This document shows positions 15,656 through 21,240 of a DNA stretch of 36,259 nucleotides, one piece after another. Both the position numbers and the translations under genes were made by a program. Position 1 is the stretch's first letter; every line of letters begins with the position of its first letter. A model generated the notes under the pieces. It saw nothing but the letters and a program-made list of their open reading frames with translations, searched no databases and was not told the origin of the DNA. The DNA is taken from assembly GCA_944363395.1 (NCBI GenBank), contig CALVUC010000016.1, forward strand, positions 1 through 36,259, read 5' to 3'. This stretch comes from an uncultured Clostridia bacterium (GTDB lineage Bacteria; Bacillota; Clostridia; Christensenellales; Borkfalkiaceae).

Positions 15656-16147
15656 ATGCAGACACTCGGAGAACGCATCGCATCCTATCGCAAGGCGGCA
15701 AACATGACGCAGGCGGAGCTTGCCGAGGCATGCTCGGTCACGGCACAGGCGGTGAGCAAGTGGGAGAACGATCTTACCGCGCCCGACATTTCTCTTATTC
15801 CAAAGCTTGCCGAACTCTTCCATGTCACGACGGACGAACTGCTCGGCGTGCCCAAACGGACGGTCGCTGCCGTCGACCCCGCAAAGGTGGACATGAGTAA
15901 AATACTCTTCCGCGTTCGCGTTTTGAGCAAGGAGGGGGACAAAGTGAATGTCAATCTCCCCCTTGCGCTCGCGGAGCTTCTGCTCTCTGACGGAGCAATG
16001 TCGTCCAAGCTGTTTGGCAGCAAAGGCGATGCGCTCAAGAGCATTGATTTTGCGCAGATCGTTGCGCTCGTCAGGCAGGGCGCAATGGGCAAGCTGGTCG
16101 AAGTGGACAGCGCAGACGGCGATAAAGTCGAGGTATGGGTGGAATGA
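15656..16147 (+). CDS. XRE-family regulator with LiaX/YvlB-like C-terminal domain
   Basis: This 163-residue protein has an XRE helix-turn-helix at residues 1-65 (TQAELAEACSVTAQAVSKWEN, ending TTDELLG). A C-terminal region follows, RVRVLSKEGDKVNVNLPLALAELLL, which resembles the conserved stretch in LiaX/YvlB-type and SHOCT-like/DUF2089-associated proteins. Such proteins are tied to envelope stress, but the resemblance is from memory. The strong AAGGAGG site and ATG at 15656 are clear. The gene overlaps its neighbour by four bases (ATGA). The repeat array upstream of its promoter suggests autoregulation. No ligand pocket or membrane segment is visible. Confidence 0.82.
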   Translation: MQTLGERIASYRKAANMTQAELAEACSVTAQAVSKWENDLTAPDISLIPKLAELFHVTTDELLGVPKRTVAAVDPAKVDMSKILFRVRVLSKEGDKVNVNLPLALAELLLSDGAMSSKLFGSKGDALKSIDFAQIVALVRQGAMGKLVEVDSADGDKVEVWVE

Positions 16148-16377
16148 AGATCTCTGTCCGCTCCGACGTCCGATTTTCGCTCGTTTTGCCTGTTCGCCTC
16201 GCACTGTGGATGGTCGGGAAGGCGTCAAAGGCGCACGCGCCCGAGGTCGCTGCGTTTTTACGGCGGGAAAGACGGCAGATCCGCAAGATCCTGCGGGCGG
16301 CGCGCCGCATACACGGAAGGCTCGAGCTTGTGCGGGTGGAGGCGGCGGACGGTACGCGCGTGCGGATCGCATTGTAA
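16144..16377 (+). CDS. 77-residue basic protein, partner of the XRE regulator
   Basis: This small protein is translationally coupled to the upstream regulator (ATG 16144 overlaps the TGA). It starts MKISVRSDVRFSLVLPVRLA. That pattern of a short beta strand followed by LPVRLALWMV echoes the NVNLPLALAELLL stretch in the regulator, so the two may share a fold and interact. The second half is strongly basic (FLRRERRQIRKILRAARRI) and ends in a beta hairpin-like VRVEAADGTRVRIAL. A longer start nine bases upstream (ATG 16135) is possible but less well placed. The function is unknown. Confidence 0.7.
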   Translation: MKISVRSDVRFSLVLPVRLALWMVGKASKAHAPEVAAFLRRERRQIRKILRAARRIHGRLELVRVEAADGTRVRIAL

Positions 16378-16387
16378 GCGCTTCTTT

Positions 16388-16426
16388 CTGCGCCGCCGAG
16401 TCGCCGACTCGGCGGCGCAGTGCTTT
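16388..16426 (+). terminator. terminator of the XRE operon
   Basis: A perfect 15-base-pair hairpin (16388-16402 and 16406-16420, three-base loop) is followed by TGCTTTT. Confidence 0.88.
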
Positions 16427-16517
16427 TATCACAAAATATGGAAATTTAATTTGCGTACAAATACTATATCTTGTGGTATCTGCCAAAAAATAATTGCAAA
16501 AATGTGTCCGCTTCCCC

Positions 16518-16546
16518 TTGACAAAGGCGGGGGAGTGTGGTATGAT
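16518..16546 (+). promoter_or_regulatory. sigma-A promoter of the pyruvate formate-lyase operon
   Basis: TTGACA (16518-16523) and TATGAT (16541-16546) are separated by 17 bases. The riboswitch starts about 15 bases downstream. Confidence 0.88.
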
Positions 16547-16562
16547 AGGGACAGTTGAAGAC

Positions 16563-16673
16563 CCCTGCGGCAACTGACGAAGAGCGGAGCACCGCATGGA
16601 ACCGCAGGGAGGGAACGCCGTTCGTCTGGGCAATTTTTATCCGTCCGTGCGCGGGTAAAGATTGCCTGTTTTT
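16563..16673 (+). ncRNA. ZTP riboswitch (pfl motif) with overlapping terminator
   Basis: The leader matches the pfl RNA layout. P1 is CTGCGG (16565-16570) with CCGCAG (16602-16607), enclosing CAACTGACGAAGA and a small GCGG/CCGC hairpin. The conserved GGGAACGCC and CGTCTGGGCA of the second half follow (to 16632). The last conserved bases GGCAAT also begin a 15-base-pair terminator (16629-16643 with 16652-16666, eight-base loop) followed by TGTTTTT. Binding of ZTP/ZMP, which signals lack of 10-formyl-tetrahydrofolate, would hold the aptamer together, block the terminator and switch the operon on. Formate made by pyruvate formate-lyase feeds 10-formyl-THF, so the logic fits the genes. Confidence 0.9.
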
Positions 16674-16692
16674 GACCTTTCGGGAGGGGCGC

Positions 16693-17430
16693 ATGGACGG
16701 GTACATCCATTCCTATGAATCTTTCGGCACGGTGGACGGTCCGGGCATCCGCTTTGTGGTGTTTTTTCAGGGCTGTCCCATGCGCTGTCAATACTGCCAC
16801 AATCCCGATACGCGGGGCAGGGGCGGGACGCGCGTTTCGGCGGAGGATGTCGCCCGGGAGGCGGCAAAGTACAAGAGCTACTTCGGCGAGAAGGGGGGCG
16901 TCACCGTCTCGGGCGGGGAGCCGCTCATGCAGCTCGATTTTCTTTCGGAGGTGCTCGCGCTGTGCAAACAAAGGGGCATCGGCACCTGCGTCGATACGGC
17001 GGGCAACTGCTTTTCGGAAGGGGACGCGCGCTTTGAAAGGCTTCTGGAGGTCGCCGACCTCTTCCTGCTCGACATCAAGCATTCCGATCCCGCGGGGCAT
17101 CTCGCGCTCACGGGGCTCCCGCAGGAGGGACCGCTCGCCTTCGCCCGCTTTTTGTGCGAGCACAAAAAGCCGATGTGGGTGCGGCACGTTCTCGTCCCCG
17201 GCATCACGGACGACGACGTTCAGCTTTATCATTTGCGCGCCATCCTCGATACCCTTCCCAATACGGAAAAGGTGGAGGTGCTGCCCTATCACACGCTGGG
17301 CGCGGAGAAGTACCGTTCGCTCGGCATCCCCTATCCCCTGGAGGGCGTCAGCCCGCCCGGCAGGGAGCGGGTCGAGAACGCAAAGCGCATCCTGCGCGCG
17401 GGATGGCAGCAAAAACGGGGGGACGTATGA
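16693..17430 (+). CDS. pflA: pyruvate formate-lyase activating enzyme
   Basis: This 245-residue radical SAM enzyme makes the glycyl radical on pyruvate formate-lyase. The iron-sulfur motif is Cys28-x3-Cys32-x2-Cys35 (GCPMRCQYCHNPDT), preceded by SYESFGTVDGPGIRFVVF. VTVSGGEPLMQ, DIKH and the C-terminal VEVLPYHTLGAEKY are all typical. ATG 16693 was chosen because it follows GGGAGGGG and lies after the riboswitch. Longer in-frame starts would translate the aptamer. It is the first gene of the operon, whereas in many bacteria it follows pflB. The thioredoxin-like gene overlaps it by four bases. Confidence 0.95.
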   Translation: MDGYIHSYESFGTVDGPGIRFVVFFQGCPMRCQYCHNPDTRGRGGTRVSAEDVAREAAKYKSYFGEKGGVTVSGGEPLMQLDFLSEVLALCKQRGIGTCVDTAGNCFSEGDARFERLLEVADLFLLDIKHSDPAGHLALTGLPQEGPLAFARFLCEHKKPMWVRHVLVPGITDDDVQLYHLRAILDTLPNTEKVEVLPYHTLGAEKYRSLGIPYPLEGVSPPGRERVENAKRILRAGWQQKRGDV

Positions 17431-17699
17431 GCAAATTCACACTTCTTGAAGTGAGCGGCGAGTCCTGCGCCAACTGTTATACGCTGCTGCCCGTCGTGAG
17501 AAAACTTGCGGCGGAACGGGGCATGGACGTGGAGCATCTGGAAGTCTCGCCCGAGAATGCGGCGCGCGTGCAGGCGCTCGCGATCGACCGCGTGCCGACG
17601 CTCATCGTCCTGCGGGACGGGGCGGAGACCGCGCGCTGTACGGGATATCAGCCCGAAGAGATCCTCTCTCTCTGGCTGGACGCCAAGACGGAAGAATAA
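17427..17699 (+). CDS. thioredoxin-like protein with CANC active site
   Basis: This 90-residue cytoplasmic thioredoxin-fold protein has the redox pair Cys14-Ala-Asn-Cys17 in SGESCANCYTLLPVV, and a cis-proline-type RVPTLIVLRDG near residue 55. It is shorter than ordinary thioredoxin (about 105 residues). The ATG overlaps the pflA stop (ATGA). It therefore sits inside the pyruvate formate-lyase operon. There it could supply electrons to the iron-sulfur activator or keep the catalytic cysteines reduced; both are inferences from position. Confidence 0.85.
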   Translation: MSKFTLLEVSGESCANCYTLLPVVRKLAAERGMDVEHLEVSPENAARVQALAIDRVPTLIVLRDGAETARCTGYQPEEILSLWLDAKTEE

Positions 17700-17744
17700 A
17701 ATACGGCTTGTTTCACAAAAATAGTTACGAGGGGGAACACGGCG

Positions 17745-19781
17745 ATGGCAAACGAAAGAGCATGGCGCGGGTTTGCGCGCGGCAGATGGAGCAACGACGA
17801 AGTGGACGTGCGCGACTTTATCCAGCGCAACTACACGCCCTATGAGGGCGACGGCAGCTTTCTTGCGCCCGCGACCGAGGCGACGAGGAAACTCTGGCAG
17901 CAGGTCATGGCGCTCTCCGAGGAGGAGAGAAAGCGGGGCGGCGTCTATAAGGCGGATACGTCCGTCGTTTCGCGCGTCAATTCGCACGCGGCGGGATATT
18001 TCGACAAGCAGCTCGAAAAGATCGTCGGCATCCAGACGGACGAGCCGTTCAAGCGCTCGCTGCAGCCCTTCGGCGGACTTCGCATGGCGGAGGAAGCGCT
18101 CAAAATGTACGGCTACGAGCTCGATCCCGAAGTCAGGAACATCTTTTTGAAGTACCGCAAGACGCACAACGACGCGGTGTTCGACGTCTACACGCCCGAA
18201 ATGCGCCGCGCCCGCCACGCGCACATCCTGACGGGACTGCCCGACAGCTACGGCAGGGGCAGGATCGTCGGCGATTACCGCCGCGTCGCCCTCTACGGCG
18301 TCGACTTCCTCATCCGCAAGAAGGAGGAGGACAAGTCGCTTCTGGACGGCTGCATGACGGCGGACAAGATCCGCGACCGCGAGGAGATCGCCGAGCAGAT
18401 CAAGGCGCTGGGCAGGCTCAAGGAGATGGCGGCTGCCTACGGCTTCGATATCTCCCGCCCCGCCGAGACGGCGCAGGAGGCGGTGCAGTGGCTGTACTTC
18501 GGCTATCTGGGCGCCATCAAGGATCAGAACGGCGCGGCGATGTCCATCGGCAGGAACTCCACCTTCCTCGATATCTATCTCCAGCGCGATCTCGACGAGG
18601 GGACGCTCACCGAGGAAGCGGCGCAGGAACTCATCGATCACTTTGTGATGAAGCTGCGCGTCGTCAAGTTCATGCGCACCAAGGAGTATAACGAACTGTT
18701 CAGCGGCGATCCGACGTGGGTCACGGAGAGCATCGGCGGCATGGGGACGGACGGCAGGACGCTCGTGACAAAGAACAGCTTCCGCATCCTGCACACGCTG
18801 GAGAATCTCGGCCCCGCGCCCGAGCCCAACCTCACGGTGCTCTGGTCGCGCAGGCTTCCCAAGGGCTTCAAGACCTTCTGCGCGGAGATCTCCATCAAGA
18901 CCTCCGCCGTCCAGTACGAGAGCGACGATCTGATGCGTCCCGAGATGGGGGACGACTACTGCATCGCGTGCTGCGTCTCGAGTATGCGCGTCGGCAAGGA
19001 TATGCAGTTCTTCGGCGCGAGGGCGAACCTTGCAAAGTGCCTCCTGTACGCCATCAACGGCGGCAGGGACGAGCTTGCGCGCGACAGGGACGGCAAACCC
19101 ATGCAGGTCTCGCCCGCCTACGCGCCCGTCTCGGGGGACGGCCCGCTCGACTACCGGGAGGTCGTCGCAAAGTATACCGAGATGATGCGCTGGCTCGCGG
19201 GACTGTACGTCAACACGCTCAACGTCATCCATTATATGCACGACAAGTACTGTTACGAGGCGCTCGAGATGGCGCTGCACGACAGCGAGGTGCGCCGCTT
19301 CTTCGCGACGGGCATCGCGGGGCTCTCCTGCGCGGCGGACAGCCTCTCCGCCATCAAGTATGCGAAGGTGTACCCCGTCCGCAACGAGGACGGCATCGTC
19401 ACCGATTTCAGGATCGAGGGGGACTACCCCAAGTACGGCAACAACGACGACAGGGCGGACGAGATCGCCGTATGGCTGGTGCGCACCTTCATGAACTTCA
19501 TCCGGTCGCACGAGACATACCGTGATTCCGTGCCGACGATGTCTATCCTCACCATCACGTCCAACGTCGTCTACGGCAAAAAGACGGGCAACACGCCCGA
19601 CGGCCGCCGCGCGGGCGCGCCGCTCGCGCCGGGCGCCAATCCCATGCACGGGCGCGATTCGCACGGGGCGCTCGCCTCGCTCGAATCGGTCGCCAAGATC
19701 CCGTACGAGTACGCGCGGGACGGCATTTCCAACACCTTCTCGGTCACGCCCCGTTCGCTGGGCAAGGACGAGGAAGTCTGA
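17745..19781 (+). CDS. pyruvate formate-lyase catalytic protein lacking the glycyl-radical domain
   Basis: This 678-residue protein covers the PFL barrel. [23 protein letters not shown] is near residue 160. The catalytic pair Cys409-Cys410 is in [20 protein letters not shown]. The end is [29 protein letters not shown] and then a stop. In ordinary PFL (about 750-760 residues) the chain would continue straight into the glycyl-radical domain. Here that domain is the next gene, and the two lengths sum to 756. PFL converts pyruvate and CoA to acetyl-CoA and formate under anaerobic conditions, using a radical on a glycine. This protein cannot carry that radical itself. The start at ATG 17745 has a GAGGGGGAA site. 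Confidence 0.92.
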
Positions 19782-19805
19782 GATCATCGCAAGGAGGAAT
19801 CGGTC

Positions 19806-20042
19806 ATGGCAAACCAGAGAACGGAAAATCTTGTCAATATGCTCGACGCATACGTCGCGGACGGCGGATATCACCTCAACGTCAACGTCTTTGACCGCGA
19901 GACGCTGCTCGATGCGCAAAAGCATCCCGAAAAATATCCCCAGCTCACCATCCGCGTGAGCGGATACGCCGTCAATTTCAACAAGCTCACCAAGGAGCAG
20001 CAGGACGACGTCATCTCGCGCACCATCCACGAGAGTATGTGA
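19806..20042 (+). CDS. stand-alone glycyl-radical domain of pyruvate formate-lyase
   Basis: This 78-residue protein is equivalent to the C-terminal end of [23 protein letters not shown] and [20 protein letters not shown] are near-consensus, with the radical-bearing Gly53 in RVSGYA, and it ends [10 protein letters not shown]. It starts with its own ATG behind a strong AAGGAGG (19791-19797), 24 bases after the stop of the catalytic gene. A clean stop, intergenic spacer and ribosome site argue for a true gene split rather than a sequencing error. It is comparable to the E. coli spare-part protein GrcA (YfiD). Here, however, it is the only radical domain supplied with this PFL, and must dock onto the 678-residue protein. 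Confidence 0.93.
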
Positions 20043-20044
20043 CG

Positions 20045-20332
20045 ATGGAGAAGGAACAACGCCGCGCGCAGAGGCAGGCGCGCAGACAGGCGCGGGACGA
20101 GGCGCGCGCCAAGCGGCAGTATGAACGGCTCAGGAGCCACGTCGTCAACTGCCCCGAATGCGGGGCGGAGGCGCTCGATCACATGACCGAATGCCCCAAG
20201 TGCGGCGCGGCGCTCACGCCGTCCGGCTACAAGCCGATGAACGAAAAGACCAAAAAGACGCTGCGCGCCGTCGCCTTTGCGGCGGGCGCCGTGATCGTCG
20301 TCGCGGCGGTCGTCATCTTTATGTTTTGTTAG
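20045..20332 (+). CDS. small zinc-ribbon protein with C-terminal membrane helix
   Basis: This 95-residue protein is encoded two bases after the glycyl-radical gene; a GTG at 20039, overlapping that stop, is an alternative start. It begins with a strongly charged helical stretch rich in Arg, Gln and Ala (residues 5-30). A four-cysteine zinc ribbon follows (Cys36, Cys39, Cys50, Cys53; CPECG and CPKCG), then one C-terminal membrane helix (about 73-94) ending in Cys. It would be tail-anchored, with the zinc ribbon in the cytoplasm. It is the last gene of the operon. Any link to pyruvate formate-lyase is inferred from position only. Confidence 0.75.
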   Translation: MEKEQRRAQRQARRQARDEARAKRQYERLRSHVVNCPECGAEALDHMTECPKCGAALTPSGYKPMNEKTKKTLRAVAFAAGAVIVVAAVVIFMFC

Positions 20333-20338
20333 AAATGA

Positions 20339-20375
20339 GCGGCTCTACTCCCGGTAGAGCCGCCTTCTTTTTTTG
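20339..20375 (+). terminator. terminator of the pyruvate formate-lyase operon
   Basis: A 10-base-pair hairpin (20339-20348 and 20354-20363) is followed by CTTCTTTTTTT. Confidence 0.9.
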
Positions 20376-20441
20376 TAGACCTTAAATTTTTCGGGTGGAA
20401 TGCGCATTTTCCGCCGTAGAAAGGGCAAAAAAGGGAGTAGA

Positions 20442-20495
20442 AGCGGCAGGGGAAAGAGTAGCGCGCGGGGGCGGGAAAATAGGTTGCCCCTGCCG
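20442..20495 (+). repeat. 11-bp inverted repeat overlapping the hemolysin III promoter
   Basis: AGCGGCAGGGG (20442-20452) is perfectly inverted at 20485-20495, separated by 32 bases. The second arm covers part of the -35 box and spacer of the promoter. It may be a regulator-binding dyad or, less likely, a chance GC-rich pair. Confidence 0.4.
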
Positions 20496-20510
20496 CTCCT
20501 TTTGCATATA
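20482..20510 (+). promoter_or_regulatory. promoter of the hemolysin III-family gene
   Basis: TTGCCC (20482-20487) and TATACT (20505-20510) are separated by 17 bases, 31 bases before the start codon. Confidence 0.65.
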
Positions 20511-20541
20511 CTGACCGTGAACAACGCACAGGGAGGCAGTT

Positions 20542-21240
20542 ATGCAGGCAGTCGTTTCACCGTGTCCCGCGCCCGCAGGGAAGGACGCGCGGGAGAAAAA
20601 GGGGTTTTTGTCCTTCTACACCAAGGGAGAGGAGATCTTCAACGCCGTTTCGCACATCGTCGGCGGCGCGATGGGGCTCGCCTTCTGGATCGTCCTCGCG
20701 CTGCTCGCCGCGCCCGATGCGGCGGCGCTGCTCGGCGTCTCGCTCTTCGGCGCCGGCGTCGTCATCCTGTACACGATGAGCGCGCTCTATCACTTCCTGC
20801 CCGACGGCAGGGCGAAGGGCGTGTTCCGCGTGTTCGATCACTGCACCATCTATCTGCTGATCGCGGGGACGTATTCGCCCTTCTGTCTCGTCGCGCTGGG
20901 CGGGACGGTCGGCTGGATCGTGTTCGGCGTCCAGTGGGCGTGCGCCGCGGCGGGCATCACGATGAACGCGATCGCCATGAACAACAAGGTCGTCAAGGGC
21001 ATTTCGATGGCGCTCTACTTCGTCGAGGGCTGGATGGCGCTCGCGCTCTTTCCGCTGCTCGTTAAGACGATGTCCGTGGCGTCCCTCCTCTTCCTTTTAG
21101 GCGGCGGGATCGCCTACACGGCGGGCATCGTGTTCTTCGCGCTCGGCAGAAAGGTGCGCTGGTTCCATTCCGTCTGGCACATCTTCGACCTCGCGGGGAC
21201 GGCGCTGCAATTCGTGAGCATCCTCCTGCTCTTCCTCTGA
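20542..21240 (+). CDS. hemolysin III / PAQR-family membrane protein
   Basis: This 232-residue protein has seven predicted membrane helices and the conserved motifs of the bacterial hemolysin III (YqfA/TrhA) branch of the PAQR family. These are EEIFNAVSHIVGG at the first helix, MSALYHFLP, FDHCTIYLLIAGTYSPF, and the C-terminal HSVWHIFDLAG. The conserved Ser, His and Asp residues are thought to form a metal-dependent hydrolase site in the membrane. Despite the name, most members are not shown to be haemolysins and appear to act in membrane lipid homeostasis. ATG 20542 has a GGGAGG site. It is a single-gene unit; no clear terminator is seen before the next promoter. Confidence 0.9.
   Translation: MQAVVSPCPAPAGKDAREKKGFLSFYTKGEEIFNAVSHIVGGAMGLAFWIVLALLAAPDAAALLGVSLFGAGVVILYTMSALYHFLPDGRAKGVFRVFDHCTIYLLIAGTYSPFCLVALGGTVGWIVFGVQWACAAAGITMNAIAMNNKVVKGISMALYFVEGWMALALFPLLVKTMSVASLLFLLGGGIAYTAGIVFFALGRKVRWFHSVWHIFDLAGTALQFVSILLLFL

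What the first reader, a model, noticed from the sequence alone, without database searches (positions are those of the whole stretch)
17745..20042. Pyruvate formate-lyase split into a radical-less catalytic protein and a stand-alone glycyl-radical domain
The catalytic gene ends at the exact border where normal PFL enters its glycyl-radical domain. That domain (Gly53 in RVSGYA) is a separate 78-residue gene 24 bases downstream with its own strong AAGGAGG. The lengths add up to an ordinary PFL (678+78). GrcA/YfiD in E. coli is a spare part for a damaged intact PFL; here no intact copy is seen in the operon. A two-piece enzyme would allow the oxygen-damaged radical subunit to be swapped without remaking the barrel, a possible designed-in repair system. 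Split forms may exist in public genomes without having been studied.
Basis: partly seen in the sequence, partly recalled or inferred. Interest (0 to 1): 0.82.

Follow-up and report, generated by a model that had tools for sequence, protein, structure and literature searches.

The report
Two-piece pyruvate formate-lyase with dedicated thioredoxin
In this gut bacterium and many relatives, an oxygen-fragile enzyme of fermentation is encoded as two separate proteins, a large catalytic part and a small radical-carrying part, in an operon that usually also encodes its own thioredoxin-like protein.

Summary
Window 17745-19781 encodes a 678-aa pyruvate formate-lyase (PFL) that stops just before the glycyl-radical domain; 24 nt later, behind its own Shine-Dalgarno, a 78-aa protein carries that domain. 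No second PFL was found in the genome (92.75% complete). It is no sequencing error: of 80 loci compared first (window included) 55 are split at this place (gaps 1-514 nt, all frames, all three stops) and 25 fused. Eleven fused forms nest within the split clade, best read as re-fusions, though repeated splitting is not excluded.

The unexpected part is a third gene. A small CxxC thioredoxin-like protein sits between pflA and pflB in 46 of 50 type-1 split loci with enough upstream sequence, and in 0 of 22 fused ones. A scan of named genomes with this protein alone kept the best 80 of 146 loci: 74 split, 0 fused, 6 undetermined. The operon also occurs in Anaeroplasma/Acholeplasmatales, apparently by transfer.

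Split PFL is not wholly unknown: NCBIfam has a 'GrcA3' model, and PDB chains 38la/38lb look like such catalytic subunits. Eight paper searches found no paper on it. Subunit exchange and the thioredoxin's role are inferred.

The parts
16518..16546 (+). promoter-like site TTGACA-17-TATGAT with TG before the second hexamer, upstream of pflA
   Evidence: 11 of 12 consensus matches; the only + strand site in 16100-20600 upstream of pflA; sequence; a consensus match is not proof
16693..17430 (+). pflA, PFL-activating radical SAM enzyme, 245 aa (ATG start chosen by me inside the longer ORF 16555-17430)
   Evidence: TIGR02493 290 bits against a cut-off of 231.75; translation
17427..17699 (+). thioredoxin-like protein, 90 aa, CANC motif and RVPT (cis-Pro position); start overlaps the pflA stop (ATGA)
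   Evidence: AlphaFold model mean pLDDT 94.5, thioredoxin fold; in 46 of 50 type-1 split loci and 0 of 22 fused loci with at least 900 bases upstream
17745..19781 (+). pflB catalytic subunit, 678 aa, lacking the glycyl-radical domain
19791..19797 (+). Shine-Dalgarno of grcA (AAGGAGG)
   Evidence: an AGGAG, GGAGG or AAGGA motif lies within 20 nt before the small gene in 55 of 55 split loci
19806..20042 (+). grcA-like stand-alone glycyl-radical subunit, 78 aa, Gly53 in RVSGYA
20045..20332 (+). zinc-ribbon protein after grcA, with relatives on the same strand in 11 of the 80 loci (10 split, 1 fused); probably not part of the enzyme
20339..20363 (+). terminator-like hairpin with T tail closing the operon

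Best explanation
This is the cell's pyruvate formate-lyase, built as an obligate two-subunit enzyme. The large subunit is the catalytic barrel with the Cys409-Cys410 pair and substrate-site residues; the 78-aa subunit is the glycyl-radical domain. PflA, encoded in the same operon, puts the radical on Gly53 of the small subunit, which docks in the barrel where the C-terminal domain of an ordinary PFL sits; the radical moves to the Cys pair and pyruvate is cleaved. Shown here: the anatomy, the wide conservation, the selection on both parts, no second PFL in the assembly, and the linkage with a thioredoxin-like gene. Inferred: that the two proteins form the active enzyme, that an oxygen-cleaved small subunit can be replaced by a fresh one (its Shine-Dalgarno is on average stronger than that of pflB), and that the thioredoxin-like protein serves the split enzyme, for instance by keeping the exposed Cys pair reduced while the radical subunit is away.
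For: C409/C410, R173, R426, W325, F423 and F319 are invariant in the 28 rows; the adjacent Cys pair is present in 55 of 55 and 74 of 74 split large subunits (ACCVS in 55 and 73, ACCIS in one), and VSGYAV in 55 of 55 and 74 of 74 small ones. Purifying selection on both genes. One PFL per split genome: 14 of the 15 split genomes show a single TIGR01255 match, and the fifteenth (G399) two non-overlapping contig-end pieces; in several only the 2 best first-look candidates were scored. The split recurs with unrelated gaps, stops and frames: in 127 loci (not all independent) 47, 42 and 38 in the three frames. Shine-Dalgarno energy stronger for grcA than for pflB in 111 of 127 (not corrected for relatedness). 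Precedent: E. coli PFL truncated at residue 695, once activated with YfiD, is as active as wild type (passages of PMC8683613). Thioredoxin link.
Against: No expression, complex or activity data. The AlphaFold model of the two halves read as one chain was poor (mean pLDDT 60.8, pTM 0.52) and says nothing about docking. In E. coli the truncated PFL bound YfiD too weakly to detect and carried 32-fold less radical than cPFL with YfiD, so a working split enzyme must have compensating contacts that I did not identify. Eleven close relatives have a fused enzyme. The genome is 92.75% complete, so a second PFL could be missing.
Confidence: 0.8

Rival explanations
1. The enzyme is two-piece, but without any repair purpose: a fission became fixed, the two halves stay together for life, and the thioredoxin-like gene merely travels in the operon by shared ancestry.
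For: Only 4 independent pairs on well-supported branches could be drawn (7 on all branches) and the paired test is far from significant (median p 0.5), so common descent could explain much of the thioredoxin-split association. Type-2 split loci have no such gene. Fused forms L135, L136, L137, L139 and L059 have no thioredoxin-less split sister in the tree.
Against: Of 201 family genomes 57 of the 64 with a stand-alone radical protein have this thioredoxin, and 2 of the 137 others do, both of these cut by a contig end inside pflB. All five type-1 split loci that truly lack it lie in small clades with fused relatives. The operon was apparently transferred as a unit into Acholeplasmatales. The Shine-Dalgarno of grcA is stronger than that of pflB in most loci.
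Confidence: 0.3
2. The large gene is a decaying, truncated PFL and the small one an ordinary GrcA spare part for some other glycyl-radical enzyme.
For: The small protein resembles GrcA families.
Against: Low pN/pS on both genes, the same break conserved in many species, no other PFL-like barrel found in the genome.
Confidence: 0.04
3. Read-through of the TGA or a frameshift yields a normal one-piece PFL.
For: In the window the small gene is in frame with pflB and no further stop lies between.
Against: In 127 split loci 47 are in frame, close to one third, and 16 of these 47 have no further in-frame stop; gaps run from 1 to 741 nt; the small gene has its own Shine-Dalgarno-like motif in 55 of 55 loci.
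Confidence: 0.03
4. Sequencing or assembly error in the window.
For: A single TGA separates two in-frame parts.
Against: The nearest relative (L159, the same sequence as L200; 93% identical in the catalytic part) is split too, with TAA and a 33-nt gap.
Confidence: 0.01

Closest known systems
Pyruvate formate-lyase PflB (TIGR01255; E. coli PDB 1h16, 2pfl)
   Same: Sequence relationship over both parts, Cys-Cys pair, radical glycine loop, PflA beside it
   Different: One chain in ordinary PFL (759 aa in E. coli); here two proteins of 678 and 78 aa
Autonomous glycyl radical cofactor GrcA/YfiD (TIGR04365; PDB 6owr) and GrcA2 (NF008341)
   Same: Small stand-alone radical domain; residues 18-78 align with YfiD 67-127
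   Different: YfiD has a disordered N-terminal half (PMC8683613 passages) that is absent here; YfiD rescues an intact PFL cut by oxygen, here no intact PFL was found; scores below both curated cut-offs
NCBIfam NF038360 'autonomous glycyl radical cofactor GrcA3' (rad_fix_GrcA3, 78 positions)
   Same: Same length and sequence family; 30 of 201 family genomes pass its cut-off
   Different: Window scores 156.3 bits against a cut-off of 158; the name speaks of a cofactor. I could not read the model's comment
PDB 38la_A (687 aa) and 38lb_A (739 aa), 'Formate acetyltransferase'
   Same: 38la ends just before the radical domain; the last 53 residues of 38lb gave no match to the first 53 of the radical subunit at E up to 10; closest to split PFLs among my sequences; 38lb groups with type-2 splits
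   Different: Other species (38la 73% identical to the window over 671 positions); titles, organisms, dates and papers not seen; an engineered truncation cannot be excluded
Thioredoxin TrxA (PF00085, TIGR01068; e.g. PDB 1v98)
   Same: Thioredoxin fold, CxxC, Pro at the cis-Pro position
   Different: 36.8 bits against a cut-off of 96.8; the match begins at model position 24; C-terminal G[YF]QPxEIL signature; tied to split PFL operons

Membership tests
Pyruvate formate-lyase (TIGR01255) | Score over curated cut-off | tested here: met
   1070.4 against 994.2 bits, without the radical domain
Pyruvate formate-lyase (TIGR01255) | Adjacent catalytic cysteines and substrate-site residues | tested here: met
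   C409/C410 and the equivalents of R176, R435, W333, F432 (roles and numbers of the last four recalled from E. coli PFL; positions by the alignment) invariant in 28 rows
Pyruvate formate-lyase (TIGR01255) | Glycyl-radical domain in the same chain | tested here: not met
   Separate gene
Pyruvate formate-lyase (TIGR01255) | Cognate activase | tested here: met
   pflA in the same operon
Pyruvate formate-lyase (TIGR01255) | Formate and acetyl-CoA production | not testable with these tools
   needs biochemistry
GrcA/YfiD spare-part protein | Score over curated cut-off of TIGR04365 or NF008341 | tested here: not met
   101.3 of 170 and 105.5 of 145 bits
GrcA/YfiD spare-part protein | Coexists with an intact PFL that it rescues | tested here: not met
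   No intact PFL found in G000; 14 of 15 split genomes have one TIGR01255 match, the other two contig-end pieces
GrcA3 (NF038360) | Score over curated cut-off | tested here: not met
   156.3 of 158 bits, a near miss
Thioredoxin TrxA (TIGR01068) | Score over curated cut-off | tested here: not met
   36.8 of 96.8 bits
Thioredoxin superfamily (PF00085) | Fold, CxxC, cis-Pro position | tested here: met
   31.5 bits against 23.5; CxxC in 46 of 46 and 80 of 80 members; model

The most novel reading that the evidence does not exclude
The thioredoxin-like protein is a dedicated partner of a serviceable two-piece PFL: when the oxygen-cleaved radical subunit leaves, the catalytic Cys pair is exposed; the thioredoxin-like protein docks there, keeps or makes the pair reduced, and hands the site to a fresh radical subunit. 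Losing it makes the split a burden and selects for re-fusion, which happened several times.
Probability: 0.35. Interest if true: 0.82.

Novelty: new variant of a known kind. Interest (0 to 1): 0.66.

Why it matters
PFL is a central, oxygen-fragile enzyme of anaerobic fermentation, and the E. coli spare-part protein GrcA is described as an add-on to an intact enzyme. Here the separate radical part appears to be the only radical part, in many uncultured gut bacteria, which makes the 'replaceable subunit' idea directly testable without an intact PFL in the background. The linked thioredoxin-like protein is a specific new lead on how such an enzyme is kept alive, and the mixture of split and fused relatives gives natural controls.

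Tried and rejected
Read-through or frameshift as the normal mode: rejected by frames and stops in the gaps. Sequencing error: rejected by relatives. Decayed gene: rejected by selection. Structure of the joined halves: the first alignment mis-stretched the rows, the second gave a poor model, so it is not used; its fold search, 50 of 61 matches at E <= 0.001 shown, gave known glycyl-radical enzymes. 38la and 38lb are not among the rows shown there although their sequences would rank high, so I infer that they were released after that library's date (8 April 2026) and I could not read their titles. Junction sequence as a test of re-fusion against never-split: mixed. The spacer is 7 residues in 10 of 11 in-clade fused forms and in 56 of 56 others (that set of 56 held a few in-clade loci a second time under other ids); L133 and L134 look like the N-terminus of stand-alone subunits, L136 and L059 look never-split, the rest are unclear or lean to never-split. 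So the direction of change rests on the tree: a two-rate model gives lnL -29.8 against -49.3 for fission only, but parsimony gives 9 changes against 12. In the tree my labels show PDB 38la as 'F?', a slip of the label function that enters no count here. Papers: searches listed no paper on a natural split PFL or a PFL-linked thioredoxin; of listed papers I saw passages only of PMC8683613, PMC12288474, PMC12338860, PMC11528403 and PMC13252398. Subscription papers are mostly not held; bioRxiv is not held as such, though a few preprints appear through PMC.

Full report
1. What is there. The window holds a compact operon: promoter-like site 16518-16546, pflA 16693-17430, a thioredoxin-like gene 17427-17699 whose start overlaps the pflA stop, pflB 17745-19781, a grcA-like gene 19806-20042, a zinc-ribbon gene, and a terminator-like hairpin at 20339-20363. 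pflB encodes 678 aa and ends ...SLGKDEEV; it matches the PFL model over positions 1-665 of 744, and the 78-aa protein matches the rest.

2. It seems to be the only PFL. A whole-genome search of G000 (1.6 Mb, 60 contigs, 92.75% complete) found one PFL-like barrel, this one, and two glycyl-radical matches: this one and an unsplit NrdD. In the order-wide survey of 396 genomes 148 had a match at E <= 1e-50. I first counted 14 split genomes (match ending at model positions 662-670, or interrupted there as in the window); on rechecking, G399 proved to be a fifteenth, of the second type below. Fourteen of the 15 show one TIGR01255 match and G399 shows two non-overlapping pieces at contig ends; in several genomes only the two best of the first-look candidates were scored.

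3. It is conserved and selected. I fetched 80 regions from relatives and compared them with the window. One region (L097) lacked the PFL and was dropped; of the 80 loci left, window included, 55 are split and 25 fused. All 55 small genes lie on the same strand downstream; gaps run from 1 to 514 nt; the large protein ends 1-3 residues after LGx in 49 of 55, 4 residues in the window. In a joined set of 127 split loci (53 of the 55 and 74; the two sets share genomes, so they are not independent) gaps reach 741 nt, frames are 47/42/38, and stops are 97 TAA, 28 TGA and 2 TAG. A Shine-Dalgarno-like motif precedes the small gene in 55 of 55. pN/pS against four relatives is 0.12-0.23 for pflB, 0.05-0.15 for grcA and 0.16-0.42 for the thioredoxin-like gene.

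4. Where it occurs. Named carriers include Candidatus Gallimonas (faecavium, merdae, caecicola, gallistercoris) and Candidatus Scatosoma pullicola; most titles read Clostridia or Clostridiales MAG, where a source is given from chicken, sheep, goat, deer or yak gut. The window's genus seems to be Gallimonas: G015 of the same genus has a contig of the same length as the Gallimonas merdae record behind L205. In the family survey (201 genomes) 64 carry the small protein in a short stand-alone frame. A second kind of split, with an unrelated extra tail on the large subunit, occurs in L154-L156 (3 genomes besides the window among the 398 of the phylum survey; tails; pflA downstream) and in G399.

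5. The thioredoxin-like gene. Among loci with at least 900 bases upstream of pflB, 46 of 53 split and 0 of 22 fused ones have it; in the type-1 clade alone 46 of 50 split and 0 of 11 fused. Genome-wide, the specific form (85 bits or more; next best about 50) is found in 59 of 201 family genomes, 57 of them with the stand-alone radical protein. None of 10 genomes with the fused form of the same type has it, nor any of 48 with other weaker radical-domain matches, most of them fused PFLs, a few cut by contig ends. Of the 7 stand-alone genomes without it, three have no upstream sequence (G922, G945, G985) and four truly lack it at the locus (G179, G216, G393, G918); the two with thioredoxin but no small gene are cut inside pflB. 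In the order survey it occurs in 11 of the 15 split genomes and in none of the 381 others. The single scan of named genomes with this protein as query matched 183 stretches, 146 of them relatives; the best 80 loci were kept: 74 split, 5 where the sequence ends inside pflB or soon after it, 1 (L252) with pflA and the thioredoxin gene but no pflB next to them, 0 fused. CxxC is present in 80 of 80 and 46 of 46; the C-terminal signature was the search pattern and so does not count as evidence. The predicted structure is a confident thioredoxin fold.

6. History. On trees of the catalytic part the split forms and both PDB chains fall in one clade (support 99; 92 and 91 in the wider trees), with 11 fused forms of the window's family nested inside. 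In the wider trees a fused group of three (L180, L186, L187) also falls within that clade near its base, so one origin for both types of split is not established. A two-rate model favours a split ancestor of the type-1 clade (0.9999) and re-fusion, but unit-cost parsimony gives 9 changes against 12 for repeated fission, and junction sequences are mixed. The five type-1 split loci that truly lack the thioredoxin gene (L094, L162, L102, L104, L280) lie with fused forms in three small clades (support 98, 93 and 94). This fits the order thioredoxin lost, then genes fused; but fused L135, L136, L137, L139 and L059 have no such sister, and independent pairs are too few for a test. Forms labelled Acholeplasmatales, Anaeroplasma and the like nest inside the Clostridia clade with the whole gene order kept, which suggests transfer of the operon.

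7. How it most likely works. PflA loads the radical on the small subunit, which docks in the barrel. In E. coli a PFL truncated at residue 695 (the window's large subunit ends at the equivalent of 680) works with YfiD once activated, though binding was not detectable and activation poor (passages of PMC8683613), so a two-piece enzyme is chemically reasonable but must have improved contacts. The Shine-Dalgarno of grcA is stronger than that of pflB in 111 of 127 loci (in the window nearly equal, -11.2 against -10.7), which fits a surplus of the replaceable part. These steps, and the role of the thioredoxin-like protein, are inference.

8. What is known. NCBIfam lists GrcA3. PDB 38la (687 aa, 4 chains) and 38lb (739 aa, 4 chains) lack the radical domain, are closest to split PFLs among my sequences, and no radical-domain chain with these codes appeared. 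Their titles, dates and organisms were not visible to me. Eight paper searches (listed under tried and rejected) found no paper on natural split PFL or on the thioredoxin link. I therefore file it as a new variant: a two-piece PFL with a linked thioredoxin, not a wholly new kind.

Noticed in passing
   Followed up: partly
L237, L238, L239, L243, L246, L259, L260, L269, L270, L273: The whole pflA-thioredoxin-pflB-grcA operon in MAGs labelled Acholeplasmatales, Anaeroplasma(taceae), Mollicutes, Bacillales and Erysipelotrichaceae, nested in the Clostridia clade: apparent transfer between phyla.
   Followed up: partly
L252 4243-5279: An Acholeplasmatales MAG with pflA and the thioredoxin-like gene but no pflB beside them.
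   Followed up: no
G000 contig C14 11866-12189 (L002): The same genome's other glycyl-radical enzyme, class III ribonucleotide reductase NrdD, is not split; an activase-like frame lies beside it.
   Followed up: partly
window 20045-20332: Small zinc-ribbon protein with a C-terminal hydrophobic stretch directly after grcA; relatives in 11 of 80 loci (10 split, 1 fused).
   Followed up: no
window 17331-20030, minus strand: An 899-aa open frame antisense to pflB, most likely a shadow of the G+C-rich coding strand.
   Followed up: no
L133, L134 (G947, G981): Fused PFLs whose junction (EKGQQIE, EPQQQIE) resembles the N-terminus of stand-alone radical subunits: possible scars of re-fusion.
   Followed up: partly
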